This document shows positions 24,799 through 43,661 of a stretch of DNA of 64,000 bases, in pieces. The translations under genes were made by a program, and so were the position numbers. Within the stretch, counting starts at the first letter, position 1. Each line of letters starts with the position of its first letter. The stretch covers positions 1 to 64,000 of IMG/VR virus record IMGVR_UViG_3300042324_000568, one strand, 5' to 3'. Source of the stretch: a virus. The notes under the pieces were generated by a model. It saw nothing but the letters and a program-made list of their open reading frames with translations, was not told the DNA's origin and searched no databases.

Positions 24799-25233
24799 AT
24801 GAAATTACAGGATATTCTATTGGAGTTATTGATGTTAGGTGTCGACCAAGAAAGGTTAAGACAGTACGGTGAAGACGTGATTGATGAATTTGAAGCTGGT
24901 CCTTACACAATGATATTAACCAAAAACAAACACAATGGAAACTACCAAGTTGGTTTGACGAGTGATGAACAAGAATTTACCTCAGTTGCTTCACAAATGA
25001 AGAAACCAACAACTAAATCAAATGGTGAAATTATTCAAACTTGGGGTAGGATATCGAGAAAATTGAAGGAATGGGTTAACGTCCATGAGAAAATTGCAAT
25101 AGGTTCGTTTAATAAAAGTAGAACCTCAAAGTATCGTAAAATCTTATTGAATTTCGGTTTAAATGTCACCGATATGTACACCCAAAGTCAGGGTGACTAT
25201 TTCTTTGTGTATAAGGATAAAAACGAAGATTAA
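24799..25233 (+). CDS. Hypothetical protein with propeptide-like start (144 aa)
   Basis: ATG 24799 is chosen; the longer frame crosses the opposing promoter. MKLQDILLELLMLGVDQERL resembles the short amphipathic leaders described in the findings (ILLE gives a possible L-x-E site). The body is a compact alpha/beta domain (YTMILTKNKHNGNYQVGL). TATTTAT is 5 bases before the ATG. Rightward gene in a leftward region; its stop overlaps the next gene by 4 bases. Confidence 0.65.
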   Translation: MKLQDILLELLMLGVDQERLRQYGEDVIDEFEAGPYTMILTKNKHNGNYQVGLTSDEQEFTSVASQMKKPTTKSNGEIIQTWGRISRKLKEWVNVHEKIAIGSFNKSRTSKYRKILLNFGLNVTDMYTQSQGDYFFVYKDKNED

Positions 25234-25655
25234 AACGCATTTAGTAATTTAGCAATTCCAATGATTGTAACCATTGTTAACAATATACTCACAACAACAA
25301 CACCAACAGGTTCTAACCTCCAACTTTCTTGAAGAACTATCTTTACCTTCGTCCAAAACTTTGGGTTAACGGTTGTTACTCTTGTTGATTGAAATAATCT
25401 TATTGGGTTATCATTTAAATCTCTATGTAATCTTTCCCCTTGTTCGGCAGCTGCGTCTCTATTCAAATTCCATTGTTGTTGAGTAATAACTTCACCTTCT
25501 ATAGGTCTTTGATACATCTCTCTAGTGTGGTACAATCTTCTTCTACCCATATGACCTTCAGGAGTGTCATCATTAAACGATGCGGTGGCATATGTTTGTC
25601 CATCCATTACATTTAATGTCCCAACATATCCTCTGAAAAATTTGAACTTGGTCAT
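25230..25655 (-). CDS. FKFF-tag protein with C-terminal membrane anchor (141 aa)
   Basis: It starts MTKFKFFRGYVGTLN, tag at 4-8. The middle is polar and Arg-rich, and residues about 115-138 form a membrane helix (VGVVVVSILLTMVTIIGIA). The N-terminus therefore stays in the cytoplasm with the tag exposed. One base is shared with the next gene. Confidence 0.74.
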   Translation of the reverse strand: MTKFKFFRGYVGTLNVMDGQTYATASFNDDTPEGHMGRRRLYHTREMYQRPIEGEVITQQQWNLNRDAAAEQGERLHRDLNDNPIRLFQSTRVTTVNPKFWTKVKIVLQESWRLEPVGVVVVSILLTMVTIIGIAKLLNAF

Positions 25656-26029
25656 TACTTAATATTTGAGGTGTAAAATGTGTTTGCTGTGCCTGTTGTT
25701 AAAGTTCCACCGAAACCTCCCGTTGTGTAAGTTATCCCATTTGGGTTTGATGTTGTTAAAGTAGAACTTGTTATGGTTCCTGTTGTTATTGTTCCGTAAC
25801 TTGGTATTGTAAATGTACCATAACCAGGTGTTGTTGTTATTGTATATGGTTGTGGAATTATGTAACCTGGATTAGTTACCCATGTAGGTGTATAGTTTAT
25901 CCCATTCCAATGTGGTGTGTATGGGGTGACAATTGTATTTAAATCATTTATTCTATTAATTGTACTCCAATCAATATTTGTTAATGGGTTTATTTCTTGA
26001 TAACCTCGTAATAATTTAAATTCTCTCAT
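25655..26029 (-). CDS. FKFF-tag protein, Thr/Gly/Tyr-rich (124 aa)
   Basis: It starts MREFKLLRGYQEINP, tag variant at 4-9. The rest is low-complexity, rich in Thr, Gly, Tyr and Pro (TITTTPGYGTFTIPSYGTI), so it is probably disordered or fibrous. It could be a structural or adhesive protein; inference only. Confidence 0.7.
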   Translation of the reverse strand: MREFKLLRGYQEINPLTNIDWSTINRINDLNTIVTPYTPHWNGINYTPTWVTNPGYIIPQPYTITTTPGYGTFTIPSYGTITTGTITSSTLTTSNPNGITYTTGGFGGTLTTGTANTFYTSNIK

Positions 26030-26033
26030 AACA

Positions 26034-26819
26034 TTAAAATTTTAAAACCTCTTTCCATAACAGAAAGATTTCATCATTATTTAGTGTAGAGACTTCATGT
26101 GTTGTTTGTTCGTTACCGAAAAACTTTGTGTTTGTGTAATGACATTCATCTTTAACCAAACAAGCCACTTCACCATTTGATGAATGATAGACTCTACCTA
26201 TACTATTATACATATCTTGTTTTGTATTTACATAACCCACAAATTCAACACATGGGTGATTTTCATATTTCTTTACATTTTCATTATAATATTCGTCCTT
26301 TAATATTTTACCATAAATGTAAATTTTTGTACATCCATCCTCCAACGCTCTTTCAATTGAAACATGTGTTTGTTTCCTTCGCTCAACGGTTCCAATAACA
26401 CCAGCAACCAAATTTAATTCAGGTTTATCGATTGGTGTCAATGGTTCTTTTGGATTTGGGATGACCATATAGGGTCCATCATATCTGTTATGATATTTTC
26501 TATGTTCTTCATGACTAAAAACTAAATTATCCCAATAATTTGGTATGTCCGCAACTTCAAACCACCATTTTTCATGACAACATAATACAATATTTTTCAC
26601 ATCTGGTCTTTTTTCTAATTTTATAAAATGTGTTAATAAAATATCATCCTTGTCTACTTTTATGTTATTTGACTTACCTGATTTACATTTATTTAAATGA
26701 AAATCATTAGGACCATAAAAAATTGTCTCAACCCCCTTTTCGTTAAATAAATTTGTTAAGTTGATTAAGATAGTTGTGGATCCTCCCTCACCTGAATATC
26801 CTGAAATTATTTTTACCAT
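26034..26819 (-). CDS. Glycosyltransferase-like GT-B protein (261 aa)
   Basis: The start MVKIISGYSGEGGSTTIL is a GT-B-type glycine loop. Residues about 135-215 show the C-terminal Rossmann domain: LVAGVIGTVERRKQTHVSIERAL, then KIYIYGKIL and VEFVGYVNTKQDMYNSI. The family transfers sugars from nucleotide donors. The final catalytic Glu region is short, so activity is not certain. It sits between tagged-protein genes. Confidence 0.72.
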   Translation of the reverse strand: MVKIISGYSGEGGSTTILINLTNLFNEKGVETIFYGPNDFHLNKCKSGKSNNIKVDKDDILLTHFIKLEKRPDVKNIVLCCHEKWWFEVADIPNYWDNLVFSHEEHRKYHNRYDGPYMVIPNPKEPLTPIDKPELNLVAGVIGTVERRKQTHVSIERALEDGCTKIYIYGKILKDEYYNENVKKYENHPCVEFVGYVNTKQDMYNSIGRVYHSSNGEVACLVKDECHYTNTKFFGNEQTTHEVSTLNNDEIFLLWKEVLKF

Positions 26820-27121
26820 TATATTATAAATTGAAATCTTATTTGGTTTATTAAATCGTTTGTAGTGTAATTCATTATCACTCTATGATAATCCTCAAGA
26901 TATGGCATCATTCCACCATCGTTAATTTTTATTCCTTCTGTTACACTTGATACGTAATATGAGTAACCCAAAAAATCATATTTTTTTGGAAATATTGTTG
27001 TTTCATATTCGCCACTTGTAACTAACTCACGAGCGAATAATTCCATTTGTGTATGGATTTCATTAACATCGTTTTCTGTTAAATTCAAAAACTCATCATA
27101 AAAAAATTTAAACTTCTTCAT
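26819..27121 (-). CDS. FKFF-tag protein (100 aa)
   Basis: It starts MKKFKFFYDEFLNL, tag at 4-7. The body is alpha/beta (EIHTQMELFARELV, YSYYVSSVTEGIKI) without a known fold. It overlaps the preceding tagged gene by 14 bases. Confidence 0.7.
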   Translation of the reverse strand: MKKFKFFYDEFLNLTENDVNEIHTQMELFARELVTSGEYETTIFPKKYDFLGYSYYVSSVTEGIKINDGGMMPYLEDYHRVIMNYTTNDLINQIRFQFII

Positions 27122-27494
27122 TGGGTATCATTATAAATTCAAATACAAATTCTGTGCGAGGATTTTCTAAAACAAACAACGGGAACACGTCGGTTGCTCC
27201 ATGAAGATTAATAACTTCTTGTTCTCTATAATCTTCATCAGGTCTTAACACAGCATATAAATAATATGTTACATCACCAGGATTATTATCAATCAAATGT
27301 CTCCATTCCACATAACTTCGGTGACATATATCTGATTGAAAAATCATATCTCCTCTTTCCATATAATATGGTTCATATCCCAAGGTATTGATTCCATTTT
27401 CATTAAAATCATTTACCAACCCAACTCCAAAAAATGGTGCTGTGGGTTGTTCAATACAAAAGGATGTTCCGTGAAAAAAAGTGAAGGGTAACAT
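27108..27494 (-). CDS. FKFF-tag protein (128 aa)
   Basis: It starts MLPFTFFHGTSFCIE, a tag with Thr in place of Lys at 4-9. The body is rich in Phe, Tyr and Asp and beta-like (VTYYLYAVLRPDEDY, FVFEFIMIP). An 8-bp inverted repeat with TATTTATA in its loop lies directly before the ATG. Confidence 0.68.
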   Translation of the reverse strand: MLPFTFFHGTSFCIEQPTAPFFGVGLVNDFNENGINTLGYEPYYMERGDMIFQSDICHRSYVEWRHLIDNNPGDVTYYLYAVLRPDEDYREQEVINLHGATDVFPLFVLENPRTEFVFEFIMIPNEEV

Positions 27495-27496
27495 AT

Positions 27497-27519
27497 GAAC
27501 TAATATAAATAATTAGTTC
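27497..27519 (-). repeat. Inverted repeat at the start of the 27494 gene
   Basis: GAACTAAT and ATTAGTTC (8-bp arms, 7-base loop) begin 3 bases before the start codon, so the mRNA leader could form a hairpin, or the DNA an operator. Confidence 0.55.
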
Positions 27520-27532
27520 GAAAAAACAAAAT

Positions 27533-27793
27533 TTAGTCGTTATAAAGTCCTAAACGTTCGGCGACTTCTGACATATCATCGTGTCCAAAGTCCTGTAGAG
27601 TACTAAGAATTTCGTCTCTGTTAGAATTGTTATTATTAGCAACTATGAGGGATATTTTACGTCTTTCGTGGTTAGACTTGGAGTCATCGAACATTTGCAT
27701 AATGGCTTTGAGTCTCCAATCCTTGGGTCCCATCTCATTGATGGTGGATTTAACTAAACTCTTTATTTCATCTTCAGATAGGAATGACTTCAT
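27533..27793 (-). CDS. Small protein with propeptide-like start (86 aa)
   Basis: MKSFLSEDEIKSLV followed by KSTINEMG forms an amphipathic helix ending in I-N-E, like T4-type capsid-targeting leaders. The rest is helical (WRLKAIMQMFDDSKSNHERR). TATTTAT is 4 bases before the ATG. A virion-associated role is possible; inference. Confidence 0.65.
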   Translation of the reverse strand: MKSFLSEDEIKSLVKSTINEMGPKDWRLKAIMQMFDDSKSNHERRKISLIVANNNNSNRDEILSTLQDFGHDDMSEVAERLGLYND

Positions 27794-27812
27794 GTAAATA
27801 AATACTCCCCAA

Positions 27813-28121
27813 TTAGACTTTATCTAAGTGAGGAGTAAGAAATTTCTGTTTGTATTTTATAAGGTAATCACATTTTTCATACTCTTCAAGGGATTCAAAA
27901 TGTGAAATGACCTCATCTATAAATGTTGGTAGGAAATCGTTTTCGATACTTTCACCTTTCCCAACTTCACTATATTGGATTGCGTAGTTTTGGAAAACCT
28001 CAAAAATTTTATCCATAAACCTTTTTCTGGTTTCACCCGATGATTTACCTCTTAAATTGGCTCTACTAACTAAAGCCCTATACATTTCCATCATCTGACG
28101 TAACCCCATTTCTTTTGACAT
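27813..28121 (-). CDS. Hypothetical helical protein (102 aa)
   Basis: All-helical, mixed charge (MMEMYRALVSRANLRG, RFMDKIFEVFQNYAIQYS). A clear host-type promoter lies 20 bases upstream. No family recognised. Confidence 0.68.
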   Translation of the reverse strand: MSKEMGLRQMMEMYRALVSRANLRGKSSGETRKRFMDKIFEVFQNYAIQYSEVGKGESIENDFLPTFIDEVISHFESLEEYEKCDYLIKYKQKFLTPHLDKV

Positions 28122-28140
28122 ATCATTGAATTTTAGAATA

Positions 28141-28172
28141 CAAAATTACTAATATTTTTATAATATTCCAAA
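28141..28172 (-). promoter_or_regulatory. Bacteroidetes-type promoter
   Basis: On the minus strand TTTG, 20-bp spacer, TAATTTTG; 20 bases before ATG 28121. Confidence 0.8.
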
Positions 28173-28183
28173 TAAATTAAGGA

Positions 28184-28426
28184 TTATTCAACTTCCTTGG
28201 GTTTAGTTTTTTCTCTAATTTCATTAATAACCACCTGTGACTCGTAATCGTGCAATACTATTCTTTTCGTATTTTCATCAGGAATACCCGACACCAATGG
28301 AAAGTCCTTAAATAACATTTTATCTAAATCTTCTTCGTCCATTTTTATTTCTCTTGTCACCACCACAAATTCATCCATTTCTACGGGTAATTTATTAACC
28401 CAATCTCTTAATTCTTTTAATAGCAT
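28184..28426 (-). CDS. Hypothetical protein (80 aa)
   Basis: It starts with an amphipathic helix (LLKELRDWVNKLPVEMDEF) followed by VVVTREIKMDEEDL. This ELRDWxNxLP layout is common in short phage proteins of unknown function. Acidic overall. Confidence 0.65.
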   Translation of the reverse strand: MLLKELRDWVNKLPVEMDEFVVVTREIKMDEEDLDKMLFKDFPLVSGIPDENTKRIVLHDYESQVVINEIREKTKPKEVE

Positions 28427-28482
28427 ATTCTTTTTTATATAATTTAAATAATTTTTTTGGTTTTATAAATTAAAATTATAAT

Positions 28483-29778
28483 TTATTTATAATATTTTTC
28501 CTTTAATCGCTTCGCGTAAGAATCATATTGATAGTAATCTTCCTCTATGAATTTATTACCCCTCCTTATAAAAACGGTTTTATTTTTAATCTCATTTGTG
28601 GGGCTTGTGTATGGGTCCATTCCCGTATCTGAATAGGTAATGTCTTTTTTTCCATCACCATTAAAATCATAATAAATAAGTTTGTTTCGATAATTGCCCC
28701 TTTTAGTACCCGATATATTTTCTATCCAACTAACATCTCTTATAAATGACCCGTCTTTCTGTTGAATGTACGCATCTATTGACCATTCTAAATGATTCGT
28801 TGCACTAATGTTAATATAATCATTAAGACCATCTAAATTCAAATCATCAACTATGTAGTCGAATACATTACCTTGGGTTACGTATGGTGTTGTTATTTTA
28901 TTAGTTAATACCGTTCCTTTTCCATCATTTAAAAATATTTGATTCTCAATATTGGTTGCAATGATTGCATCATTTATACCGTCCTTATTGATGTCTTTTA
29001 TTTTACAATAAAATGGTAAATCGTTCCTTTCTGATACCAAAAAATCTTTGTTGGTAAAATATGGGGGTGTGGATGTTCCCCAAAAAACGTAAACTCTTGG
29101 ATTTGCCATAATTAACAAATCAGGAATTTTATCCCCGTTTAAATCACCCACCGAACCATGTTCATAAACAACATTTTCATTTGGTAAAGGGGGTTGTAAA
29201 TCTAACTCAGTTAAATCGTATCCACCTTTACCGTCACTTAAACAAATGGTAATAGGTTCGATTCTATTTTTCGGTGAGGATTCATCTTGATGACCAAAAA
29301 TTACCAAATCAACATAATTGTCACCATTCAAATATATTGGTGACACTTTAGTCGGTGCACCAATAAAATTTGTTTTATTATTTATTAGATTCTTTTCTAC
29401 GAATGTAGTATCAACAGGGTCCCATATTAAAAAACTTAATCTAGATTTTTGTCCTCCGAATGCACTACCCCCATTAAAAACATCAATGTAACCATCATTG
29501 TTAAAATCACCATTACAAATAGCTTGAGTCCACGCACAATAGGCATCACCTTGTGGTAGTGCATAAACTTCAAAATTCTTTTGAAACACACCAATCATTA
29601 AATCACTTAATACTGGTGTATTCTCCCAATAATCAGTTCCTAGTTGACGAGCCTTAGGGTCAACAACATATCCTTTAAACGTTACAACATCCGTTAATTG
29701 TTTAATAGGTAAAATATCTTCTTTCTCACAAGAGAAAAGAAAAAATGAAACTAAAAGAATTAAATAGAATTTTTTCAT
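28483..29778 (-). CDS. FG-GAP/VCBS-repeat lipoprotein (431 aa)
   Basis: The start is ATG 29778, after the promoter. MKKFYLILLVSFFLFSC is a lipoprotein signal with Cys at 17, followed by EKED. The mature protein has at least five FG-GAP/VCBS calcium loops (GDFNNDGYIDV, GDLNGDKIPDL, KDINKDGINDA, DDLNLDGLNDY, YDFNGDGKKDI), as in beta-propeller surface proteins of Bacteroidetes. It is probably a host-derived gene displayed on the infected cell. Confidence 0.85.
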   Translation of the reverse strand: MKKFYLILLVSFFLFSCEKEDILPIKQLTDVVTFKGYVVDPKARQLGTDYWENTPVLSDLMIGVFQKNFEVYALPQGDAYCAWTQAICNGDFNNDGYIDVFNGGSAFGGQKSRLSFLIWDPVDTTFVEKNLINNKTNFIGAPTKVSPIYLNGDNYVDLVIFGHQDESSPKNRIEPITICLSDGKGGYDLTELDLQPPLPNENVVYEHGSVGDLNGDKIPDLLIMANPRVYVFWGTSTPPYFTNKDFLVSERNDLPFYCKIKDINKDGINDAIIATNIENQIFLNDGKGTVLTNKITTPYVTQGNVFDYIVDDLNLDGLNDYINISATNHLEWSIDAYIQQKDGSFIRDVSWIENISGTKRGNYRNKLIYYDFNGDGKKDITYSDTGMDPYTSPTNEIKNKTVFIRRGNKFIEEDYYQYDSYAKRLKEKYYK

Positions 29779-29795
29779 ACTATAATATTTGAATA

Positions 29796-29827
29796 CAAAT
29801 ATACGAATATTTCTAGTATATTCCAAA
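29796..29827 (-). promoter_or_regulatory. Bacteroidetes-type promoter
   Basis: On the minus strand TTTG, 20-bp spacer, TATATTTG; 18 bases before ATG 29778. Confidence 0.87.
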
Positions 29828-30175
29828 TTATTTTACAAATAGTTGTATAAGAACTATTGTAAACCCTAACATCAAACAGATTGCATTTTTTAAATCTAAT
29901 GGTTCTTTGAACAGGAAGTGGGACATTAATGTAAAAATGATAACGCCAACACCAAAACCAACCAATCTACTTGGCCAAATTTGACCACCAAATCCTACGA
30001 TAAAGTTATTAACTGATAAAATGTACACCCAACCAAGTGGAACACTTGCTAAGATAACCAACCATTGGTATTTCTCGTACCATCCATACTTATAAGATCC
30101 TTGTAATTGAAGGAAGGTTCCTACCTGTCCTATAATACCGAATAGGATTCCCAATAATATTTTATTATAATTCAT
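29828..30175 (-). CDS. Four-helix membrane protein (115 aa)
   Basis: Hydrophobic segments at about 5-25, 37-57, 68-88 and 95-114 give four membrane passes. Size and layout resemble small multidrug-resistance/EamA half-units, but the residues are not diagnostic. Its last bases overlap the promoter region of the lipoprotein gene. Function unknown. Confidence 0.65.
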   Translation of the reverse strand: MNYNKILLGILFGIIGQVGTFLQLQGSYKYGWYEKYQWLVILASVPLGWVYILSVNNFIVGFGGQIWPSRLVGFGVGVIIFTLMSHFLFKEPLDLKNAICLMLGFTIVLIQLFVK

Positions 30176-30204
30176 ATGTTATAATGTAAGAAAAATTTCT
30201 TGAA

Positions 30205-30232
30205 ATAAAAAACCCCACTTAAGTGGGGGTTT
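30205..30232 (-). terminator. Intrinsic terminator
   Basis: AACCCCACTT and AAGTGGGGGTT form a stem. On the minus strand it is followed by a T run (A run at 30206-30212). Confidence 0.85.
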
Positions 30233-30237
30233 ATGTT

Positions 30238-30795
30238 TTAGTTGATGTATAATCTTAAATTATTGTAGAGTGCTACAGGATTATCCTCCGCAATTAAACC
30301 ATACTCACCCGTCACCTTTTCGTGAATCACTTTCTTATCTTCATTGATGTACTTACTAATGATGTTTACAAATCCGTAATTAGATTCATCAACTTGGTCT
30401 TGTTCGGTACCAGGTAATCCACAATACAATGCCTCACCAACTTCGCTGATGAACATACCAGAATAGAATCCCTCAAGTTGGAAGGTGTCTACAAATTTGT
30501 CAGCATTACACCAAATAAAGACGCTGTTGTCCTTTTGTTTCAAAAGTGGTACAATCGATTGGTCAATGATGTAACCTCCGTATTTCGACCCACAATCAGT
30601 AAATTGACCTATATTGAAAAGTCCGCCAGGACTGCCGTGTCCCATCATCATAACTCGGTCATGTGATTCAATTAATTTAATCACCTCCATTTTACTCATA
30701 CCACCTGTTACAACTGTTTTGTTAGGGACGTTTTTATAAACAATTTCCAAAAACGTTGTGCTTTCATCCGAAGGATGTATAATTAATGTTTTCAT
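30238..30795 (-). CDS. Caspase-fold-like conserved phage protein (185 aa)
   Basis: VMMMGHGSPGGLF (49-60) and NSVFIWCNADKF (90-101) place a His-Gly and a Cys after hydrophobic strands, as in the catalytic pair (H53, C96) of caspase/clostripain-type peptidases. A conserved GFYSGMFISEVGEALY block follows. The family is frequent in phages but its activity is not established, so proteolysis is inference. It ends at the terminator 30205-30232 and follows the DnaA-domain gene. Confidence 0.6.
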   Translation of the reverse strand: MKTLIIHPSDESTTFLEIVYKNVPNKTVVTGGMSKMEVIKLIESHDRVMMMGHGSPGGLFNIGQFTDCGSKYGGYIIDQSIVPLLKQKDNSVFIWCNADKFVDTFQLEGFYSGMFISEVGEALYCGLPGTEQDQVDESNYGFVNIISKYINEDKKVIHEKVTGEYGLIAEDNPVALYNNLRLYIN

Positions 30796-30796
30796 A

Positions 30797-31177
30797 TTAT
30801 TCTATTTTTGATTTTATTTTGTTAAAAATTGAGTCTGCAACATCTTTATAATCATCATAACATTTATAACGATTGTTAAATTTTTTGAGTGAATCTAAAA
30901 TTGTTGTGTGGTCCCTGTCAACCATTCTACCAATTTCAGTTACAGGATATCTGAATATCTTTCTCATGACTGCTATGTACATATGACGAGCGTCAACTAC
31001 TTCTCTTTTCCTAATTCTTGTTAGTATCCTTGTCGAACTTACCGAACAATGTTGGGACACTATTAATAAGATTTCTTCTTTGGATATTTTATCTCTATCA
31101 AATTTCTTTACTTTAACATAGTCGGCGGTATCTTTAATACCAGGATATACGTATGGACTTATTTTAGACAATATCAT
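30797..31177 (-). CDS. Stand-alone DnaA domain IV protein (126 aa)
   Basis: Residues 58-100 contain REVVDARHMYIAVMRK and the DnaA signature DRDHTTILDSL (87-97). This helix-turn-helix domain reads the DnaA box. The AAA+ domain is missing, so it cannot form the usual replication initiator. It may bind DnaA boxes to regulate phage or host replication or transcription. It has its own promoter. Confidence 0.86.
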   Translation of the reverse strand: MILSKISPYVYPGIKDTADYVKVKKFDRDKISKEEILLIVSQHCSVSSTRILTRIRKREVVDARHMYIAVMRKIFRYPVTEIGRMVDRDHTTILDSLKKFNNRYKCYDDYKDVADSIFNKIKSKIE

Positions 31178-31194
31178 TAAGTAATTTTAGAGTA

Positions 31195-31226
31195 CAAAGG
31201 TACGGGTTTTTTTGGAATATTCCAAA
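31195..31226 (-). promoter_or_regulatory. Bacteroidetes-type promoter
   Basis: On the minus strand TTTG, 20-bp spacer, TACCTTTG; 18 bases before ATG 31177. GGAATATTCC, a 10-bp palindrome, lies in the spacer and could be an operator. Confidence 0.87.
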
Positions 31227-31231
31227 TATAT

Positions 31232-31465
31232 TTAGAAATTACCAAAAAGATATTGGTAAACTACTTGTGGGATTCTGGTACAAATGTGTGGTTCTCCTTG
31301 AGAATCAGTACATTCCAATGAAGGTAACGTATTAATATATTTCTTCATATAATTAGGTGCGTTGTTCAACTGAGAAACAATATGTCGCTTTGAGTAAAGC
31401 TTTTCAGGATTATAATATTCGTTCAAAATTGTTTTGTATTGACTTTCAGTTAGGATTAATTTCAT
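31232..31465 (-). CDS. Small protein with propeptide-like start (77 aa)
   Basis: MKLILTESQYKTILNEYYN is a leader of the TESQ type ending in L-N-E, similar in layout to T4-type capsid-targeting sequences. The remainder contains one CTDSQGEPHIC loop (possible disulfide). TATTTAT is 4 bases before the ATG. Likely virion-associated; inference. Confidence 0.65.
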   Translation of the reverse strand: MKLILTESQYKTILNEYYNPEKLYSKRHIVSQLNNAPNYMKKYINTLPSLECTDSQGEPHICTRIPQVVYQYLFGNF

Positions 31466-31497
31466 ACCAATAAATATCAGGTATTTTTTCTTTTTTT

Positions 31498-31563
31498 CCA
31501 GTATTTATCTAGTATACTAGAACTAGTTGCTTAAATCTAGAAAACAATACTAGTAGATACTGG
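31498..31563. repeat. Long imperfect inverted repeat rich in CTAG
   Basis: The arms 31498-31515 and 31547-31563 match at all but about three positions (CCAGTAT...TAGTAT). The perfect palindrome CTAGTATACTAG lies at 31509-31520. There is no T run on either side, so it is not an ordinary terminator. Confidence 0.7.
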
Positions 31564-31569
31564 ATAGGA

Positions 31570-32604: not shown

Positions 32605-32646
32605 ATTATGAAATTTTAATAATTTACAAAAAAGTTTAATTGTTCA

Positions 32647-32677
32647 CAAAGATAGTGATTTTTTGTGAAATCACAAA
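32647..32677 (-). promoter_or_regulatory. Bacteroidetes-type promoter with palindromic spacer
   Basis: On the minus strand TTTG, 19-bp spacer, TATCTTTG. The spacer contains GTGATTT and AAATCAC as an inverted repeat, suggesting a repressor site. Confidence 0.8.
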
Positions 32678-32682
32678 ATTTA

Positions 32683-32925: not shown

Positions 32926-32966
32926 ATATCTTGTTCTTTATAATCAAATATACTAAAATAATTGAA

Positions 32967-32996
32967 TAAAAAAAAACCTCACATTTCTGTGAGGTT
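32967..32996 (-). terminator. Intrinsic terminator
   Basis: AACCTCACA, TTTC, TGTGAGGTT (9 bp), followed on the minus strand by a T run. Confidence 0.87.
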
Positions 32997-33013
32997 CGTA
33001 TTATAATTTTTTA

Positions 33014-33235
33014 TTATTTATCGAATTTCTTAACAACCTCTTCGGTACCATCGGGATTGGTTTTGTAAAGAACATAACCTGTCGCACCAACCAATCCTAA
33101 TTTTAATTCCATTCCACCTTCTGAACTGTCATCGACACCGTCAATTTCGTCCAAATTAGCGTTCATATTTTCAGTAACAATCTTAGTTACAATTCTTTCA
33201 ATATCTGATTGTTTTATCTTAATAGTTTTTGACAT
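33014..33235 (-). CDS. Small protein with propeptide-like start (73 aa)
   Basis: MSKTIKIKQSDIERIV and TKIVTENMNANLDE form an amphipathic helix and an acidic linker, of the same type as at 27533 and 31232. The short mature part is beta-like (LGLVGATGYVLYKTNPDG). TATTTATA lies 15 bases before the ATG; the terminator 32967-32996 follows. Confidence 0.65.
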   Translation of the reverse strand: MSKTIKIKQSDIERIVTKIVTENMNANLDEIDGVDDSSEGGMELKLGLVGATGYVLYKTNPDGTEEVVKKFDK

Positions 33236-33289
33236 GATTCCTGTTTTATATATAAATACTTGTTATTAGGTTTTATTCTTATAAATACA

Positions 33290-33829
33290 CTATAAAGATA
33301 AAAAAGTGGGTAGTTCTAAGTCCTTACTTGATATTCTTTCTAAATAACCACTCACTCTCCATTTGATATTCAAAGTTGGGTCGTTGTATATAATTCCACC
33401 TTCACTTTCTTTGTTGTATGGGTTATCAACTTTATATTGGAATATTGTATTATCACTTAATGCTGAGAATCCGTGAGCACATCCTCTTGGTACGAACACT
33501 TGTTTGTTTTTTCCCCAACCAAGTTCAACCTCAACAACCTTACCATAACTTGGGGAACCCTTTCTAATATCAACGATAACATCCAATACTCGTCCGGTGA
33601 TACACGTAACAAGTTTAGCCTGTTCATAGTCACCAGTTTGAAAATGAAGTCCTCTAATGGTCCCTAAATGAGAAAATGACATATTATCCTGAATGAACTC
33701 CACTTCATACCCCACATTTTGATTGAATATATCTTTATTATATGGCACGGCGAAGTAACCACGTTCGTCCACATATGTGTCGTGGGTTATTACGTAACAA
33801 CCCTCAATATCTGTCTTATTAAATTTCAT
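33290..33829 (-). CDS. rfbC: dTDP-4-dehydrorhamnose 3,5-epimerase (179 aa)
   Basis: The whole length matches RmlC: DERGYF (21-26), FIQDNMSFS (45-53), IRGLHFQ with catalytic His62, DVIVDIRKGSPSYG (83-96) and VPRGCAHGFSAL (113-124). The enzyme epimerises C3 and C5 of dTDP-4-keto-6-deoxyglucose on the way to dTDP-rhamnose. RmlA, B and D are not in the window, so it must work with host or distant phage enzymes. It probably supplies donors for the glycosyltransferases here. Confidence 0.93.
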   Translation of the reverse strand: MKFNKTDIEGCYVITHDTYVDERGYFAVPYNKDIFNQNVGYEVEFIQDNMSFSHLGTIRGLHFQTGDYEQAKLVTCITGRVLDVIVDIRKGSPSYGKVVEVELGWGKNKQVFVPRGCAHGFSALSDNTIFQYKVDNPYNKESEGGIIYNDPTLNIKWRVSGYLERISSKDLELPTFLSL

Positions 33830-34110
33830 TATTGGTTTCCTCCTAAATCAAATTCATCTTCCCAATCCTTAGTTGTTTTGGGTTTGCGTTTGGTTCTAGT
33901 TTTTACAAATGGTTCTTCACTTTTAATTCCATCAAATTGTTTTGGATTTGGTTTTGATTGAAATGTAATCTTAACAGCATCCTTTTCCAACTTAGTTAAT
34001 CTTTCTTCTAACAATAGTAAACTATCATTTGTTAAAGATATTTTTTCAGTCCAAAAAACAATCCCTATTAATAATATAACCACAAATAAAATAACCATAA
34101 ATAATAACAT
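33829..34110 (-). CDS. Single-pass membrane protein with coiled coil (93 aa)
   Basis: A hydrophobic N-terminal helix (about 2-20, LLFMVILFVVILLIGIVF) is followed by a heptad-rich segment (SLLLLEERLTKLEKDAV) and a basic then acidic tail. One base is shared with rfbC. Function unknown. Confidence 0.65.
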   Translation of the reverse strand: MLLFMVILFVVILLIGIVFWTEKISLTNDSLLLLEERLTKLEKDAVKITFQSKPNPKQFDGIKSEEPFVKTRTKRKPKTTKDWEDEFDLGGNQ

Positions 34111-34135
34111 AATATTAGTTTTGATAAAATGTAAA

Positions 34136-34165
34136 TAAAAAAAATGGGATAAAAAAATTATCCCA
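34136..34165 (-). terminator. Intrinsic terminator overlapping a stop codon
   Basis: TGGGATAA, five A, TTATCCCA, followed on the minus strand by eight or nine T. The stop codon of the upstream gene (34158-34160) lies in the stem. Confidence 0.8.
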
Positions 34166-34811
34166 CAACATTTTTCATTCCATCTACATGATGATCATCA
34201 GGCCCAAGTTCAGAACCTATCGGTTGTTTCTTCATTGGGTTTAATATTTCATGATGTAAATCATATGGTCTAAATTCAAGATGTCCGTCCATACCAACAT
34301 CCATTCTTCTAAACAATATCTTCTTTTCATTTGGGAGATGAGAGTGTCCATGAAGATGGATACGACCCTTAGCAAGACTGTTCCAAGATAGTATTGGAAA
34401 GTGCATACATTCCATCGTTTCACCCATGTGATTTAATTGTAAAAACCATTGTGTACTTGTGAACAAACTTTGACAGTTCTCCCTATTGTTCACAATATGA
34501 TGGTCGTGGTTACCATAAATTAAATGTATCTCTTTACATGTAATTCTATTACGTAACTCTTCAATGTTTTCAAATCCACCAAATGACCAATCACCAAAAT
34601 GTATCAACACATCATCTTGACCAACAACCTCATTAATGTTATTAACTATTGATGCGTTCATCTTATCCAACGTTTCAAATGGGCGTGTTTGTTTTTCTGG
34701 TACCTCACCATTCGGCAATCTCCAATTAGTTATTCCACGACATATATTTGTGTGTGAATAGTGTGTGTCCGAAGTCACCCATACTTTCCTATCGTTTGGA
34801 ATCTTTAACAT
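34158..34811 (-). CDS. Phage-type metallophosphoesterase (217 aa)
   Basis: The motifs are VTSDTHYSH (with HTNI), HFGDWSFG, LIYGNHDHH, CMHFPILSW and HLHGHSHLP, in the order of calcineurin-like phosphoesterases often found in phages. Two metal ions would be bound by Asp, His and Asn. The natural substrate is unknown (a nucleotide, phosphoprotein or RNA end). It abuts the next gene with a one-base overlap. Confidence 0.87.
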   Translation of the reverse strand: MLKIPNDRKVWVTSDTHYSHTNICRGITNWRLPNGEVPEKQTRPFETLDKMNASIVNNINEVVGQDDVLIHFGDWSFGGFENIEELRNRITCKEIHLIYGNHDHHIVNNRENCQSLFTSTQWFLQLNHMGETMECMHFPILSWNSLAKGRIHLHGHSHLPNEKKILFRRMDVGMDGHLEFRPYDLHHEILNPMKKQPIGSELGPDDHHVDGMKNVVG

Positions 34812-35194
34812 TATTTCTGAAAAAATTTAAAATCTTTATTATTAAATCTTCTATTTGGTGGTTCTACTCTTGATATTGGTGGTGGGGGTGGAATAGTTCT
34901 ATTAGAATATACATGAGGTGGTATTCTTTGTCCAATATTACTTGTTCTTTCTCTGTTAATTAATCCCAAGGTTTGAAACCATTTCCTATGTCTTTCATTA
35001 CTTTCCATTACTCCATAATATTTCTTCTTCTCTTCAACATCCTTTCCCACTATTAAAGCTAATATTGGCCCTAACAATATTGCACCTATTATCATATCCA
35101 AACCCAATGTGTAATGTTTATTATGATAATACATTACATATGTTGATGACATTATCCAAACCAATATTAAAAAAACAATTAATAACGTACTCAT
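34811..35194 (-). CDS. Membrane protein with C-terminal FKFF tag (127 aa)
   Basis: Two hydrophobic helices (about 3-20 and 33-50) put both ends on the same side. The soluble tail is polar and Pro-rich (RTIPPPPPISRVEPP) and finishes NNKDFKFFQK. It has the tag at the C-terminus, as does the membrane protein at 20106-20573, and lies 7 kb from the main cluster. Confidence 0.74.
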   Translation of the reverse strand: MSTLLIVFLILVWIMSSTYVMYYHNKHYTLGLDMIIGAILLGPILALIVGKDVEEKKKYYGVMESNERHRKWFQTLGLINRERTSNIGQRIPPHVYSNRTIPPPPPISRVEPPNRRFNNKDFKFFQK

Positions 35195-35210
35195 TTAATA
35201 AAATTTATTT

Positions 35211-35513
35211 TTAATTATCGGGTAACATATCAGGATCATTTAATATTCCCCTTTTACTTTTAATAACATCTTTAATGTTTTCTTCGTAATTGGTTTTACC
35301 TGATTGTTGTGTTGTCATTGTTTCACCTCGACTTGTAAAATAATGAAAATGTGTTCCATCATAAAATCGATAAATCTTGACACCATCTTTTTCAAAAAGA
35401 TATGTAACGGAATAATCATCATTATTTGTTTTTAATTTTTCAACACCATCTCCATAGCAAGAAACAAATGTGATTGAAATTAAAAGTAATAATAAAAGTT
35501 TAGAGGTTCTCAT
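35211..35513 (-). CDS. Predicted lipoprotein (100 aa)
   Basis: MRTSKLLLLLLISITFVSC is a lipoprotein signal with Cys at 19. The mature part is beta-like (YSVTYLFEKDGVKIYRFYDG, HFHYFTSRG) and resembles small DUF4884-type Bacteroidetes lipoproteins. A 14-base overlap links it to the next lipoprotein gene. Probably host-derived. Confidence 0.75.
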   Translation of the reverse strand: MRTSKLLLLLLISITFVSCYGDGVEKLKTNNDDYSVTYLFEKDGVKIYRFYDGTHFHYFTSRGETMTTQQSGKTNYEENIKDVIKSKRGILNDPDMLPDN

Positions 35514-35766
35514 GGTTAATATATTTTGGGTGTTTTATTTCTTTAATAAATTGTTTCTTTGTAATCCATTCTTTTATTTCCCTGTTTGCACTACTCAATG
35601 ATGAGTGAGCAAAATAAGATTCCTTCCATACAAACCCAACTCTTTGTGTTGGTATATAGAAAACATTATTATCATCGTGACGAACGACTTTGACTTTATA
35701 ATTAACACATGACTGTACCGACAACACTCCCATTATCGATACCACTAATAAAACGATTTTTTTCAT
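35500..35766 (-). CDS. Predicted lipoprotein (88 aa)
   Basis: ATG 35766 directly follows the exonuclease stop; the longer frame overlaps that gene. MKKIVLLVVSIMGVLSVQSC is a lipoprotein signal with Cys at 20. The mature part is basic and aromatic (GFVWKESYFAHSSLSSANR). Function unknown. Confidence 0.7.
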   Translation of the reverse strand: MKKIVLLVVSIMGVLSVQSCVNYKVKVVRHDDNNVFYIPTQRVGFVWKESYFAHSSLSSANREIKEWITKKQFIKEIKHPKYINHENL

Positions 35767-35767
35767 A

Positions 35768-36424
35768 TTAATAAAATTTTCTAAGTACTTCAATAACATC
35801 CCAAGCATCTTCCAATGCGTTGTGGGTAACAATTCCATTAACACCCGCACGTTCTTTACATTGTGTTAAGTTTGGTAATGACTTATCATTTGTCCAATCA
35901 ACCATTAATATTGCAGGGTCCAATACTCTTTGACGAGTACGGATTAATTTTTGCCACCAAGGTAATTCTTGTAAGAATAGTTTATCAAACGTTCCAAAGT
36001 TTTTACCTGCAACATTTAATGTGATTGGTTTAGTTTTACCATCAATGATTGGTGTTAATTTTCCATTCACATGAGTTGATTGTGAATCTAAAAGTGAAAA
36101 TCCATTACACCATAGAAACATATAGAATTCTTTGGTTACCTCGTCTTCATGATAAAAACTATAATCGGAATGTGTTTGCATAAGATGTTTAGTCTCATCG
36201 GTACCCTCAAGATATTCACCAACCATTTGAATGATTCCTCCATTCATCGTGATTGCCCTTGGTGAACCGATGATTTCATTTTGAAGAACTATCGCATTGA
36301 ACTTAGGACATTCCTCGTAAGGTAATTTCTTTTCGGTATCTTCAATGATTGCACCGATAGATAATACTTTGTGTTTCTCGTGATCAAGACCTGATGTCTC
36401 GATGTCTATTGATACATATATCAT
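35768..36424 (-). CDS. DEDDh 3'-5' exonuclease (218 aa)
   Basis: VSIDIETSGL (4-13) is the ExoI motif with the catalytic Asp and Glu. NVAGKNFGTFDKLFL carries the middle Asp, and THNALEDAWDVIEVL the final His-x4-Asp. This is the RNase T / DnaQ fold, which removes 3' nucleotides from DNA or RNA. The phage copy is free-standing and may act in DNA repair, RNA turnover or dNTP recycling. Confidence 0.87.
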   Translation of the reverse strand: MIYVSIDIETSGLDHEKHKVLSIGAIIEDTEKKLPYEECPKFNAIVLQNEIIGSPRAITMNGGIIQMVGEYLEGTDETKHLMQTHSDYSFYHEDEVTKEFYMFLWCNGFSLLDSQSTHVNGKLTPIIDGKTKPITLNVAGKNFGTFDKLFLQELPWWQKLIRTRQRVLDPAILMVDWTNDKSLPNLTQCKERAGVNGIVTHNALEDAWDVIEVLRKFY

Positions 36425-36441
36425 ATTAAATGTTTATAATT

Positions 36442-36942
36442 TTAACAAAAATCATCTGATGATGAAACCCTAAGTCCATCTACAATTCTATCGTCATATT
36501 TTGGGTCATCAAAAAATGAACCCATACCTTTTGAACGTTGTTCTTTTCTATATTCTTGGTCCACAACCAAACCGTCGGGTTCACCCCAATTAAGTGCCAT
36601 CACAATAAACTCATTCACCTCTAATTCTTCCCCATATTCGTTAACCACTCGACCCGAACGAATAAATTCAAGTAGACTTTCTTTATCTTGATAGTATTTG
36701 TCTTTGTGAAAATTCCAACAGAACTTCCAACCTGAACTTCTTTTACCTAAATGAATATTTGTTCCATTGATAAACATTTCCCAAGGTGAAAACCATTCCC
36801 AATCTTTTGTTGGTGAAATATATTTCATTTCTCTTTCAAGGTTTTCAACAGACATATCCATTGATGTAACTTGTTGAATTAGAGTCTGTTGTCTCTTTAA
36901 CATCTCTTCTTTTGTGGGTATTCGATAATAGTTTGTTGACAT
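36442..36942 (-). CDS. Conserved phage protein (166 aa)
   Basis: It starts MSTNYYRIPT and has IHLGKRSSGWKFCWN near residues 73-87. Both blocks recur in a small phage family of unknown function, with a beta-sandwich-like centre. The C-terminus is acidic. Promoter at 36960-36990. Confidence 0.72.
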   Translation of the reverse strand: MSTNYYRIPTKEEMLKRQQTLIQQVTSMDMSVENLEREMKYISPTKDWEWFSPWEMFINGTNIHLGKRSSGWKFCWNFHKDKYYQDKESLLEFIRSGRVVNEYGEELEVNEFIVMALNWGEPDGLVVDQEYRKEQRSKGMGSFFDDPKYDDRIVDGLRVSSSDDFC

Positions 36943-36959
36943 TTTAGTAAGTTTATATG

Positions 36960-36990
36960 CAAATTTACGTATTTTTTATGATATAACAAA
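36960..36990 (-). promoter_or_regulatory. Bacteroidetes-type promoter
   Basis: On the minus strand TTTG, 19-bp spacer, TAAATTTG; 17 bases before ATG 36942. Confidence 0.8.
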
Positions 36991-36996
36991 ATATGT

Positions 36997-37027
36997 AAAA
37001 AAAAATCCCCACATTTCTGTAGGGATT
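36997..37027 (-). terminator. Intrinsic terminator
   Basis: AATCCC...ACA, TTTC, TGT...GGGATT with one bulge; a T run follows on the minus strand. A second hairpin (ATCCTTG/CAAGGAT) lies upstream at about 37051-37074. Confidence 0.82.
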
Positions 37028-37082
37028 GTTAACTGAAACACTAGTGTGTCAATCCTTGAATACTTACCAAGGATGGGTCCAA

Positions 37083-38465
37083 TTATTTAATTATTCTCTT
37101 CATTACATTTTGAACAATTGAATTAACATAACTTTCATTAAGTTGTGGTTCTTCTTGTCCTTGTGTTTGTTCTTCATCATCGTTAAACGCCGCTAAACGT
37201 GCCGCTCTATTTGATCTGATTTCTGCACGTTGTTCATCACTCAATTCGTAGTTTACAATCTTAGCTCTTGTTAATTGTTCAGGGATTGGTATTTCCATGA
37301 TTTGTTGTACAATCTCACTTAGAACTTCTTGTAATCCTTGTCTGATTGCCTCGTTGTTTGCAATTGTATCTTTACTCGATATGTCACCACTCAATGGATT
37401 TTCTTCCAAATCAATAGTTCTTGAAGCGGTAAAATTATAATCTTCAGCCAATTTTGCTCTCTCTATTTGACCATTGTTTCTAATGTTTTTACCATGTTCG
37501 GTTTTAAACGTTGCATTGATTTTATAATATTGAGTAACACCTTGACCTAACATACCATCGATAGTTAACAATGAAGTCACACAAGTATCAAACGTTGTTG
37601 GTGATAAACCATATTTTTCTAAATTGTACAATTCAGTAAACCCTTCCCATCGACCAGAACTCTTTTTAGTTTTATCCCAGTTGTCATAAACTTTATTAAA
37701 TTGACGACCTAAATGGTGTTCTCTATAAAATTTTTCATCGGCACTTGTTACACCATTTACATTTCTTACCGCTGAATTGTAGTAATCCCTAACATTTTCA
37801 TATGAATTAAATGAAAGTGTTTGATATGTAAATGCATTATTAGTAAATTTACTATGTCTATCTAAGAAAGCTCTTTCATTAATACTGATTTTTGGAATAC
37901 TATTTTTTTCTAAATAATCTTGAACTTGACTATTAATTGTCCGTTGAGCAATTGGATATAACATATACCTTTTGATGTACTCGGCGTCAGCTATCTCACT
38001 ATCAAATCTTACTCTTGCATCAATTGTTTGACGTTCACCTTCTGGTTCATATACTTCAAATTCTCCGGTTGTTACTCGAGGTTCGCAAGTTGGGTTTGTT
38101 TTCTTTTTTGATATGTAAAATTTACCATATTCTTCTTTTAACGCATTAATTGCCGATTGATGTGTTTGAATAAACTCATCAATTTGACTAAGACATGGGT
38201 AAATAATAACAATTGGTTGTTTAGTGGTTTTGTCTAAGATTTTGTGTCCAATATGACTACCTTTAGCCTTACCTGATCTTAACTCAGAACCTCTGGCTTT
38301 ATATGAACCCTCGTAACCTTTACTATCTTGAGGTTCACTCATGATTGGTTCCCAAGACTTTTCAGTTCCTTGTTGTTTTTTAAAGTCAGCTAATTCGTCT
38401 ATGTCCATTTCTAACGAGTTTTCGTTCAACATCGTTATCAATTCACTTTTTTTAAATTCTCTCAT
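37083..38465 (-). CDS. Probable virion-associated protein (460 aa)
   Basis: It begins MREFKKSELITMLNENSLEM, a propeptide-like leader with an L-N-E site. Near the end another L-N-E (QLNESYVNSIV) precedes a basic amphipathic helix (QNVMKRIIK). The middle is polar, without enzyme motifs. Leaders at one or both ends, the length and the strong terminator suggest an abundant late protein. TATTTATA is 24 bases before the ATG. Confidence 0.62.
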   Translation of the reverse strand: MREFKKSELITMLNENSLEMDIDELADFKKQQGTEKSWEPIMSEPQDSKGYEGSYKARGSELRSGKAKGSHIGHKILDKTTKQPIVIIYPCLSQIDEFIQTHQSAINALKEEYGKFYISKKKTNPTCEPRVTTGEFEVYEPEGERQTIDARVRFDSEIADAEYIKRYMLYPIAQRTINSQVQDYLEKNSIPKISINERAFLDRHSKFTNNAFTYQTLSFNSYENVRDYYNSAVRNVNGVTSADEKFYREHHLGRQFNKVYDNWDKTKKSSGRWEGFTELYNLEKYGLSPTTFDTCVTSLLTIDGMLGQGVTQYYKINATFKTEHGKNIRNNGQIERAKLAEDYNFTASRTIDLEENPLSGDISSKDTIANNEAIRQGLQEVLSEIVQQIMEIPIPEQLTRAKIVNYELSDEQRAEIRSNRAARLAAFNDDEEQTQGQEEPQLNESYVNSIVQNVMKRIIK

Positions 38466-38520
38466 ATCTGTTAAAATTTCTTATATGTATATAAATACTC
38501 CAATTATAGTATTTGTATCA

Positions 38521-38883
38521 TTACACATTCATTTTAAGAACACATTCGAGATGGTTGGTATTAACCAAATAGTCGGTATCCACATTTGAGGTGTCTCCAC
38601 CACAATATTCACAAACCCATTGACTCGTTGTGTCAATCTTTTCCATACCATAATTTTCGTAAAAATATTGTCTAATTTTACCCCCTAACTCAAAATTGTT
38701 GGGGTACGTTGTCACGTAATGTTTTGGGATGGTAATCATGTCTCTACTCTCAGGACCACCTTTAAGGTGACATTCTAAACATAGTTGACCAGCACCCTCT
38801 ATGTAACCAGTTCTAAAATCTACGTGTGTGTTAATGTTGGTTGTGGTTTCTTTACCACATAAAATACAAATTTCGTTTGGCAT
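38521..38883 (-). CDS. Zinc-binding hypothetical protein (120 aa)
   Basis: CILCGKE (6-12), LCLEC (about 34-38) and WVCEYCGGD (about 89-97) give three CxxC pairs, enough for one or two zinc sites. A His/Tyr-rich segment lies between them. No known family; nucleic-acid binding is possible. Confidence 0.68.
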   Translation of the reverse strand: MPNEICILCGKETTTNINTHVDFRTGYIEGAGQLCLECHLKGGPESRDMITIPKHYVTTYPNNFELGGKIRQYFYENYGMEKIDTTSQWVCEYCGGDTSNVDTDYLVNTNHLECVLKMNV

Positions 38884-38946
38884 AATAATAAATTTATAAT
38901 ATGAATATAAACTTATTATTTTGTATTAAAAAGTGTTTTTGGGGAA

Positions 38947-40482
38947 TTACACGTAAGTATCGGTTGATTTGTTCTTATTAAGAGAAGCATAAATTGGAGC
39001 CGCGATTCTATTTGCTTGAGCCGCAATTTTATTAATAGACTTCTCATATCCACCACTTGCATATCTTTGGTTGTTTTTATTGACAAAGTTTGCCAATAAA
39101 TCATTAGCGGTTTTACCTTTTACCAAGTAACTCCTTGCAATTAAATTATAATATGTGTCAATACCACTCTGAACGGTACCATGTTGAACGTTTGCTCCTG
39201 AATCTGTATTTCCTACGTTAAATGGATTGTTTGTTCTAATTGGTCTACTTTTAGGGTCCGAGTTTCCAATACCTCCTTCGGTAGCCAATTGAGCTAAAGC
39301 CAATTCAGGTGGAACATACTTATTATACTTTTGGAAGGCGTTTTTAGCTCCTTGGGTTAACATATTACCTTTAATACCCAATAAGTTAGGTGGTCTGGTT
39401 TTAATAAATTTATCACATATTTCAGAATATGCATTTTGACCCTCATTGGTTGTTAAATCTAAATCTGTAAATAATATACCACCACCTGTTGTGGATGCCT
39501 TATCTATATATGGGTCTAAGTCACTAGGTTTTAAATTTTTAACTAACAATTTAGAGACCATTGAATCAACCATTTCGGGACTTATAACCGACTCACTTCC
39601 GTTACTTGATTGGTTAGGTGTTGAGAAATCATAACCACCTTTACCTATAAAATTCATTGGGTTAACTAATTGTCCATCTTTTCTTAATGTAAAATGTAGG
39701 TGAGCCCCTCTAGAATTACCTTTACCAGAGTCGTTAGCATCTCCACCACTTAAACCCACAATATCTCCCGCATTAACATTTTGTCCTTGAGTTACTTTAA
39801 TATCTTTAATATGACAAAATCCAGATTGAAATCCACTTCCGTGTTTAATAATTATCGTTCCTCCACATCTTGGTGTTTCTCCTGCTTTTGTCACTACACC
39901 TTCAGCTGGTGACTTAACGGGTGTTCCCGATTTAGCCCTTAAATCCACACCAGGGTGGGTTTCATAACTTCTTTTTTCACCAAATGGAGAATTAACACTA
40001 TTAGAATCGATAGGAACAGGTTCCATTAATGCTGCCTCATGAATTAAGGCGGATTCTATTAATATCCTCATCGGGATTGATGATTCTTCAATTGTATCTT
40101 TATCTGTAATATTGTTATCTTTCTTGTATTGATTTACCGCTTTTGCCGTTTCAGGACCAAATAAACCATCAACACCGTGCAATGGTAAGTTATAACCTAA
40201 TAACATTAAACCTATTTGAACTGACTCAACATCGGTTTGATATTCCATACTTCCAACTCTTTGTTGGAATAAAGGTTGGTCTATATTTTTTAATGTATCT
40301 AAAAATTTAGTAACATCATTAGTTACGTAATCGGCTGTTTTTTGATTATCTACTTTTTTTACCTCTTCAGGTTCTTTATTTGATTTAGATAATAAATCAG
40401 ACATAAATGATTCATTCACCACATTTTCACCGTAAGTGATTGTGTGAATCCTTTTTAATTCTTCAATTAAGTTATTCTTCAT
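38947..40482 (-). CDS. Three-domain peptidoglycan hydrolase (511 aa)
   Basis: Residues 84-122 form a peptidoglycan-binding domain (GLMLLGYNLPLHGVDGLFG). Residues about 160-280 are an M23 metallopeptidase, with His176, Asp180 and HLHF (261-264) as zinc ligands. Residues about 345-500 look like a glucosaminidase (ELALAQLATEGGIGN, NPFNVGN). The leader MKNNLIEELKRI and a V-N-E site near residue 24 suggest virion location, so it may act at entry as well as lysis. TATTTATA is 5 bases before the ATG. Confidence 0.87.
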   Translation of the reverse strand: MKNNLIEELKRIHTITYGENVVNESFMSDLLSKSNKEPEEVKKVDNQKTADYVTNDVTKFLDTLKNIDQPLFQQRVGSMEYQTDVESVQIGLMLLGYNLPLHGVDGLFGPETAKAVNQYKKDNNITDKDTIEESSIPMRILIESALIHEAALMEPVPIDSNSVNSPFGEKRSYETHPGVDLRAKSGTPVKSPAEGVVTKAGETPRCGGTIIIKHGSGFQSGFCHIKDIKVTQGQNVNAGDIVGLSGGDANDSGKGNSRGAHLHFTLRKDGQLVNPMNFIGKGGYDFSTPNQSSNGSESVISPEMVDSMVSKLLVKNLKPSDLDPYIDKASTTGGGILFTDLDLTTNEGQNAYSEICDKFIKTRPPNLLGIKGNMLTQGAKNAFQKYNKYVPPELALAQLATEGGIGNSDPKSRPIRTNNPFNVGNTDSGANVQHGTVQSGIDTYYNLIARSYLVKGKTANDLLANFVNKNNQRYASGGYEKSINKIAAQANRIAAPIYASLNKNKSTDTYV

Positions 40483-43660: not shown

Positions 43661-43661
43661 A

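What the first reader, a model, noticed from the sequence alone, without database searches (positions are those of the whole stretch)
24799..40482. A second leader class resembling capsid-targeting propeptides
Several proteins begin with a short amphipathic helix ending in a [LIV]-x-E site. They are MKLILTESQYKTILNE (31465), MKSFLSEDEI...TINE (27793), MREFKKSELITMLNE (38465), MSKTIKIKQSDI...VTE (33235), MKNNLIEELKRI...VNE (40482) and MKLQDILLE (24799). T4-type prohead proteases cut after [LI]-x-E. The bodies again differ, and one is a lysin. These proteins may be packaged into the head and trimmed. The 460-aa protein has such a site near both ends.
Basis: partly seen in the sequence, partly recalled or inferred. 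Interest (0 to 1): 0.78.

Follow-up and report, generated by a model that had tools for sequence, protein, structure and literature searches.

The report
Cleavable head-packaging leaders in phage proteins
Several otherwise unrelated proteins of this large lake phage, among them a cell-wall-cutting enzyme, begin with a short tag ending in a conserved protease cut site, most likely so that they are loaded into the phage head, trimmed and injected into the host as in phage T4, although packaging and cutting have not been observed.

Summary
Relatives rescue the idea. In four ortholog families found here (460-aa, M23 lysin, 77-aa, 73-aa), the Glu ending the leader is invariant (17/17, 29/29, 12/12, 7/7), while most other leader residues vary. 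Leaders are swapped between orthologs while the cut site stays. The 460-aa family has a second site near its C-terminus (16/17). The lysin has one between its peptidoglycan-binding and catalytic parts (25/25). A 'TESQ' box heads 49 unrelated body families, 43 followed by [LIV]xE. Colinear near-complete relatives (287-311 kb) encode a T4 gp21-type protease, portal and gp23 capsid whose propeptide ends LINE|[SA]. The window's record stops short of that region. Best reading: T4-style capsid-targeting propeptides of divergent sequence, used on an unusually broad cargo (lysin; in relatives ArdC-like, CCA-adding, HD, exonuclease proteins). Leader 24799 has no support; 27793 is plausible but an orphan. 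Packaging and cleavage are inferred, not shown. New variant of a known kind.

The parts
38421..38465 (-). Leader of the 460-aa protein, MREFKKSELITMLNE (aa 1-15), predicted cut LNE|N
   Evidence: E15 invariant in 17 of 17 orthologs, one of only 8 invariant columns in the whole-family alignment
37134..38420 (-). Body of the 460-aa protein (aa 16-444), function unknown
   Evidence: No Pfam or PHROG match; AlphaFold model mediocre (pLDDT 67.8), no fold match at E<=0.001. A possible further site IDE|L at aa 24, Glu invariant in 17 of 17
37086..37133 (-). C-terminal propeptide-like tail SYVNSIVQNVMKRIIK (aa 445-460) after QLNE|
   Evidence: Glu in 16 of 17 orthologs; gp22-like scaffold of relatives ends VLSE|SKAYENPQFKRMKDLMTKIK
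40411..40482 (-). Leader of the M23 lysin, MKNNLIEELKRIHTITYGENVVNE (aa 1-24), predicted cut VNE|S
   Evidence: E24 invariant in 29 of 29 orthologs; four orthologs carry a different (TE[DN]Q-type) leader
40084..40410 (-). Peptidoglycan-binding module of the lysin (aa 25-133), ending in a second predicted site IEE|S
   Evidence: PG_binding_1 aa 83-126; a [LIV]xE site lies 14-28 residues past the GLFGPETA motif in 25 of 25 orthologs shown, before different catalytic domains
38950..40083 (-). Catalytic part of the lysin (aa 134-511): M23 peptidase, then a glucosaminidase-like region
   Evidence: Peptidase_M23 aa 175-275 (2.3e-26, above cut-off); Glucosaminidase aa 380-490 (2e-4, below the curated cut-off)
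31418..31465 (-). Leader MKLILTESQYKTILNE of the 77-aa protein, predicted cut LNE|Y
   Evidence: E16 invariant in 12 of 12 orthologs; one ortholog has a different leader MKLTTTYKQLVNE|N on the same body
33170..33235 (-). Leader MSKTIKIKQSDIERIVTKIVTE of the 73-aa protein, predicted cut VTE|N
   Evidence: E22 invariant in 7 of 7 orthologs
27734..27793 (-). Leader MKSFLSEDEIKSLVKSTINE of the 86-aa protein, predicted cut INE|M
   Evidence: Fits the leader class by eye; no homolog in the loci fetched
24799..24825 (+).
   Evidence: No homolog, no box, no Pfam match: not supported

Best explanation
The leaders are capsid-targeting propeptides that work like those of T4 internal head proteins. During prohead assembly the amphipathic leader docks its body into the scaffold core. 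The gp21-type serine protease then cuts after [LIV]-x-E, so the body stays in the head and is ejected with the DNA. The 460-aa protein is trimmed at both ends. The lysin is cut twice, after its leader and again after its peptidoglycan-binding module. Shown: a conserved site, modular and exchangeable leaders, and protease plus capsid with the same site class in colinear relatives. Inferred: docking, cleavage, packaging and injection.
For: Site Glu invariant in four ortholog families, 17/17, 29/29, 12/12, 7/7. Second site at the C-end of the 460-aa family, 16/17, and inside the lysin, 25/25. Leader swaps on the same body: lysin (L019, L022, L025, L030) and 77-aa protein (L065). A protein that stands alone with leader MRLILSEQQYQRLILE|ADKR or MKTINLIEQLILE|ANRK is fused behind the lysin in three contigs with LLLE|[AS]DKR kept at the junction. 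49 unrelated body families with a TESQ-like box at the start: 43 then have [LIV]xE within 22 residues versus 22% in internal windows; strict form 32 versus 3.9%. Box count at N-termini 9 versus 0.6 expected (G012) and 9 versus 0.4 (G022). Varied Ser and Thr codons argue for selection on the protein, not the DNA. S77 protease, portal and gp23 in relatives; gp23 propeptide LINE|[SA] and scaffold VLSE|[SA]. T4 precedent: 10-19-residue propeptides on unrelated bodies, cut at L/I-X-E, Alt cut at both ends (PMC9026906).
Against: No protein-level data. The window's own record lacks protease and capsid genes (truncated). Bare motif not enriched in the window. A few TESQ proteins lack a clear [LIV]xE (6 of 49). 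Fifteen incomplete records found with the TESQ pattern showed no S77. No leader-bearing body tested matches a known internal head protein.
Confidence: 0.82

Rival explanations
1. Chance: short N-termini with [LIV]xE picked by eye from a proteome in which the motif is common.
For: In the window the motif is no commoner at N-termini than inside proteins; two of six examples have no homologs.
Against: Invariant site Glu in four families, leader swaps, and enrichment in near-complete relatives.
Confidence: 0.06
2. The leaders target proteins to another site (membrane, replication compartment, tail or baseplate) and the [LIV]xE is structural, for example a helix cap, not a protease site.
For: No direct evidence of cleavage; some box-bearing proteins lack a clear site.
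Against: The same site ends the gp23 propeptide and precedes the scaffold tail, recurs at a C-terminus, at a fusion junction and between lysin domains, where a leader-helix cap would make no sense.
Confidence: 0.1
3. Targeting is real but trimming is optional or partial: the box docks proteins into the head, and only those with a good site are cut.
For: 6 of 49 box families have no [LIV]xE within 22 residues, e.g. MKIIITESQFEEIKSDVDAKK on an HD protein. In T4 IPIII targeting and processing residues are separable (PMC9026906).
Against: Most families keep the site, invariantly where orthologs are known.
Confidence: 0.2
4. The conserved start is a DNA or RNA signal (translation initiation in SD-less Bacteroidota hosts), not a peptide signal.
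For: It sits at the start codon.
Against: Ser, Thr and Leu codons vary freely, including TCN versus AGT serine; the same site occurs at C-termini and junctions.
Confidence: 0.02

Closest known systems
T4 capsid targeting sequences (IPI, IPII, IPIII, Alt) and gp21 processing
   Same: Short N-terminal propeptide on unrelated bodies, site L/I-X-E, gp21-type S77 protease and gp23 capsid in the same phage group; Alt is trimmed at both ends, as the 460-aa protein is predicted to be (PMC9026906).
   Different: Leader sequence differs (TESQ/LTESD box or L.E.L.RIH type, up to 24 aa); V is also accepted at P3; cargo is far broader and includes a multi-site lysin; no packaging data.
bS21-encoding huge phages of freshwater Bacteroidetes (PMC9723584)
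   Same: Relatives G010/G012 have a bS21-like gene on the opposite strand next to gp21, scaffold and capsid genes, as described there.
   Different: A word search of that paper found no mention of cleavage; whether it describes the leaders was not checked beyond that.
SPN3US/phiKZ-type ejection proteins cut by a prohead protease (PMC7411985, PMC10052503)
   Same: Many head-packaged, proteolytically trimmed proteins ejected into the host (abstracts).
   Different: Different phage lineage; no TESQ leaders reported in the abstracts seen.

Membership tests
T4-type capsid-targeting (internal head protein) propeptides | Short N-terminal propeptide (T4: 10-19 residues, Alt 7) shared by unrelated bodies | tested here: met
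   15-24 residue leaders; 49 unrelated body families with the box
T4-type capsid-targeting (internal head protein) propeptides | Propeptide ends in gp21 site L/I-X-E | tested here: met
   Invariant Glu with L/I/V (sometimes M/F) at P3 in four ortholog families
T4-type capsid-targeting (internal head protein) propeptides | Phage encodes an S77 gp21-type prohead protease and a gp23 capsid with the same site | tested here: met
   Met in colinear relatives G010, G012, G020 and (protease) G022; the window's own record is truncated and lacks both
T4-type capsid-targeting (internal head protein) propeptides | Leader sequence homologous to the T4 CTS | tested here: inconclusive
   No formal comparison was possible on 10 residues; distant relatives G014/G015 have leaders such as MKTIKDFINE|K that look closer to T4's
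T4-type capsid-targeting (internal head protein) propeptides | Leader is sufficient for packaging and is removed in the mature virion | not testable with these tools
   Needs virion proteomics or fusion experiments

The most novel reading that the evidence does not exclude
These huge Bacteroidota phages load roughly 25-35 different leader-tagged proteins into one head (rough excess estimate) as an injected first-strike kit. It would include a multi-part pro-lysin matured by the prohead protease and, in relatives, ArdC-like anti-restriction, CCA-adding, HD and exonuclease proteins. Leaders would be freely exchangeable modules.
Probability: 0.4. Interest if true: 0.85.

Novelty: new variant of a known kind. 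Interest (0 to 1): 0.68.

Why it matters
If true, a sequence signature now predicts which of the many unknown proteins of an abundant, mostly uncultured phage group enter the host with the DNA. It offers a catalogue of candidate early counter-defence and takeover proteins, and a set of natural leader tags for packaging proteins into heads. A head-borne pro-lysin split by the capsid protease would be unexpected.

Tried and rejected
Motif statistics on the window alone: no enrichment. S77 search in the window's record: negative, explained by truncation. gp23 hits in G001-G008 looked like a split capsid gene but are small FKFF-leader proteins with a gp23-like segment. AlphaFold and Foldseek of the 460-aa protein: mediocre model, no significant match. 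TESQ pattern scan then S77 search to test co-occurrence: 0 of 15, but all records were incomplete, so undecided. Search for leaders in cultured phages: one weak, probably chance hit to one query, none to the other, so no cultured model found. Paper search for the leader motif: no relevant hit. Translation-signal hypothesis: rejected by codon variation.

Full report
Observation. The window is 64 kb of a 70,758-base virus record. [LIV]xE occurs 17-19 times per 1000 positions between residues 11 and 22 of window proteins and 18.2 times internally. A helix-permissive version is found in 16% of N-termini versus 20% of internal segments.

Relatives. A scan with the 460-aa protein gave five related contigs, and a scan with its 166-aa neighbour gave 80. 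The near-complete relatives are G012 (288 kb), G020 (311 kb) and G022 (287 kb). Most window genes with hits map to G012 153-226 kb, and G001 (176 kb, 84% identical in the 166-aa protein) maps to G012 101-226 kb. G010 and G012 carry a Peptidase_S77 gene (PF03420, 79.7 bits; T4 gp21 structure 5jbl at 1.9e-12), gp23 (PF07068, 216 bits; T4 gp23 at 5e-25) and a gp20 portal (PF07230) at about 25-33 kb. G020 and G022 were reached through their own close gp21 homologs (loci L221 and L227). The head module therefore lies outside the window's record, so its absence there is uninformative. G010 and G012 have a bS21-like gene on the opposite strand beside gp21, as described for freshwater Bacteroidetes phages (PMC9723584).

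The site. In these relatives the gp23 propeptide ends ...ENQAS[YH]LINE|[SA]A, and the gp22-like scaffold ends VLSE|[SA]KAYENPQF followed by a basic tail. The predicted gp23 site lies just before the region aligned to the N-terminal part of mature T4 gp23*. In T4, gp21 cuts after L/I-X-E, propeptides of internal proteins are 10-19 residues, and Alt is processed at both ends (PMC9026906).

Conservation. In ortholog alignments the Glu ending the leader is 100% conserved in the 460-aa (17 sequences), lysin (29), 77-aa (12) and 73-aa (7) families, with a hydrophobic residue at P3 throughout; in the first three families most other leader positions vary. In the 460-aa family E15 and E24 are the only invariant Glu among 47, and a further [LVIM]xE lies about 17-20 residues from the C-terminus in most members, the Glu aligning in 16 of 17. 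In the lysin family a [LIV]xE site, mostly [LVI]NE|[AS], follows the PG-binding module in 25 of 25 orthologs examined, 14-28 residues after a common GLFGPETA motif and before different catalytic domains (M23 in some, no Pfam match in others). The precursor is therefore predicted to be cut at least twice.

Modularity. Four lysin orthologs carry a TE[DN]Q-type leader (for example MRVIISENQLKKVLKSSLNE|N) in place of the L.E.L.RIH leader, and one 77-aa ortholog has MKLTTTYKQLVNE|N in place of the TESQY leader. A second protein has leaders MRLILSEQQYQRLILE|ADKR, MKTINLIEQLILE|ANRK or MKIINLIEELIIE|ASKK when free. In three contigs it is fused behind the lysin with LLLE|[AS]DKR kept at the junction. 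The invariant positions before the cut are L13 and E16 (numbering of the first sequence).

Leader class across the group. A TESQ-like box (hydrophobic-[TSK]-[EQ]-[SAT]-[QDE]-hydrophobic) within the first residues occurs 9 times in G012 (0.6 expected), 9 in G022 (0.4), 4 in G020 (0.4) and 4 in G001 (0.3). Pooled over all loci it heads 49 body families; 43 have [LIV]xE within 22 residues after it (internal control 22%, other N-termini 34%), and 32 have the strict form (3.9% and 12.9%). Ser codons are TCA, TCC, TCT, TCG and AGT, so the peptide is selected. G012 has a cluster of such genes at 236-259 kb, including the ortholog of the window's 77-aa protein. Excess N-terminal sites suggest roughly 25-35 tagged proteins per genome; this is an estimate, not a count. 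More distant relatives G014 and G015 have leaders that look closer to T4's, such as MLNFNQFINE|S and MKTIKDFINE|K, with strict sites enriched 5-8 fold at residues 11-16.

Cargo. Most bodies have no Pfam or PHROG match. Those that do: M23 lysin (window), a CCA-adding-enzyme-like protein (PolyA_pol 2e-40) and an HD protein in G022, an ArdC-N plus M78 peptidase-like protein in L019 and an RNase_T-type exonuclease in L055. An anti-restriction-like body recalls T4 IPI, but the ArdC match is modest (4e-6, above cut-off).

Judgement. I take the leaders of the 460-aa, lysin, 77-aa and 73-aa proteins as prohead-protease propeptides of the T4 kind (0.82). 27793 is plausible, 24799 is not supported. Docking to the scaffold, cleavage, packaging and injection remain inferred. 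The kind is known from T4; the leader sequence, the breadth of cargo and the multi-site pro-lysin are new to me, and the paper searches I could run did not turn up a description.

Noticed in passing
window 56450-56758 (+): A 102-aa FKFF-leader protein contains a 60-aa segment about 43% identical to the gp23 capsid protein of relatives; homologs in G001-G008 share this.
   Followed up: partly
window 34811-35194 (-) and 20106-20573 (-): The FKFF motif of the first leader class also ends two proteins with hydrophobic N-terminal stretches (NNKDFKFFQK*, KLTFKFFRG*); the first is conserved in orthologs (DFKFFH*), so it looks like a tag usable at either end.
   Followed up: partly
window 43331-44445 (-): Three adjacent genes resembling iron-sulfur cluster assembly (IscU-like scaffold, ferredoxin, IscA-like), conserved in relatives; identification by eye only.
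   Followed up: no
L087:646-846 (-): bS21-like ribosomal protein gene on the opposite strand beside gp21 in G010/G012; identified by eye and by context with PMC9723584.
   Followed up: partly
record G000 69029-69715 (-), beyond the window's end (L001:9029-9715): Shortened homolog of the leader-tagged 518-534-aa protein, matching only an inner part (from about residue 73), without the leader.
   Followed up: partly
window 30797-31177 (-): 126-aa protein with a DnaA C-terminal helix-turn-helix domain (1.7e-14).
   Followed up: no
L160:10765-13251 (+): Scaffold and capsid genes read as one 828-aa frame, with the rest of gp23 in a separate frame; probably an assembly error in that contig.
   Followed up: no
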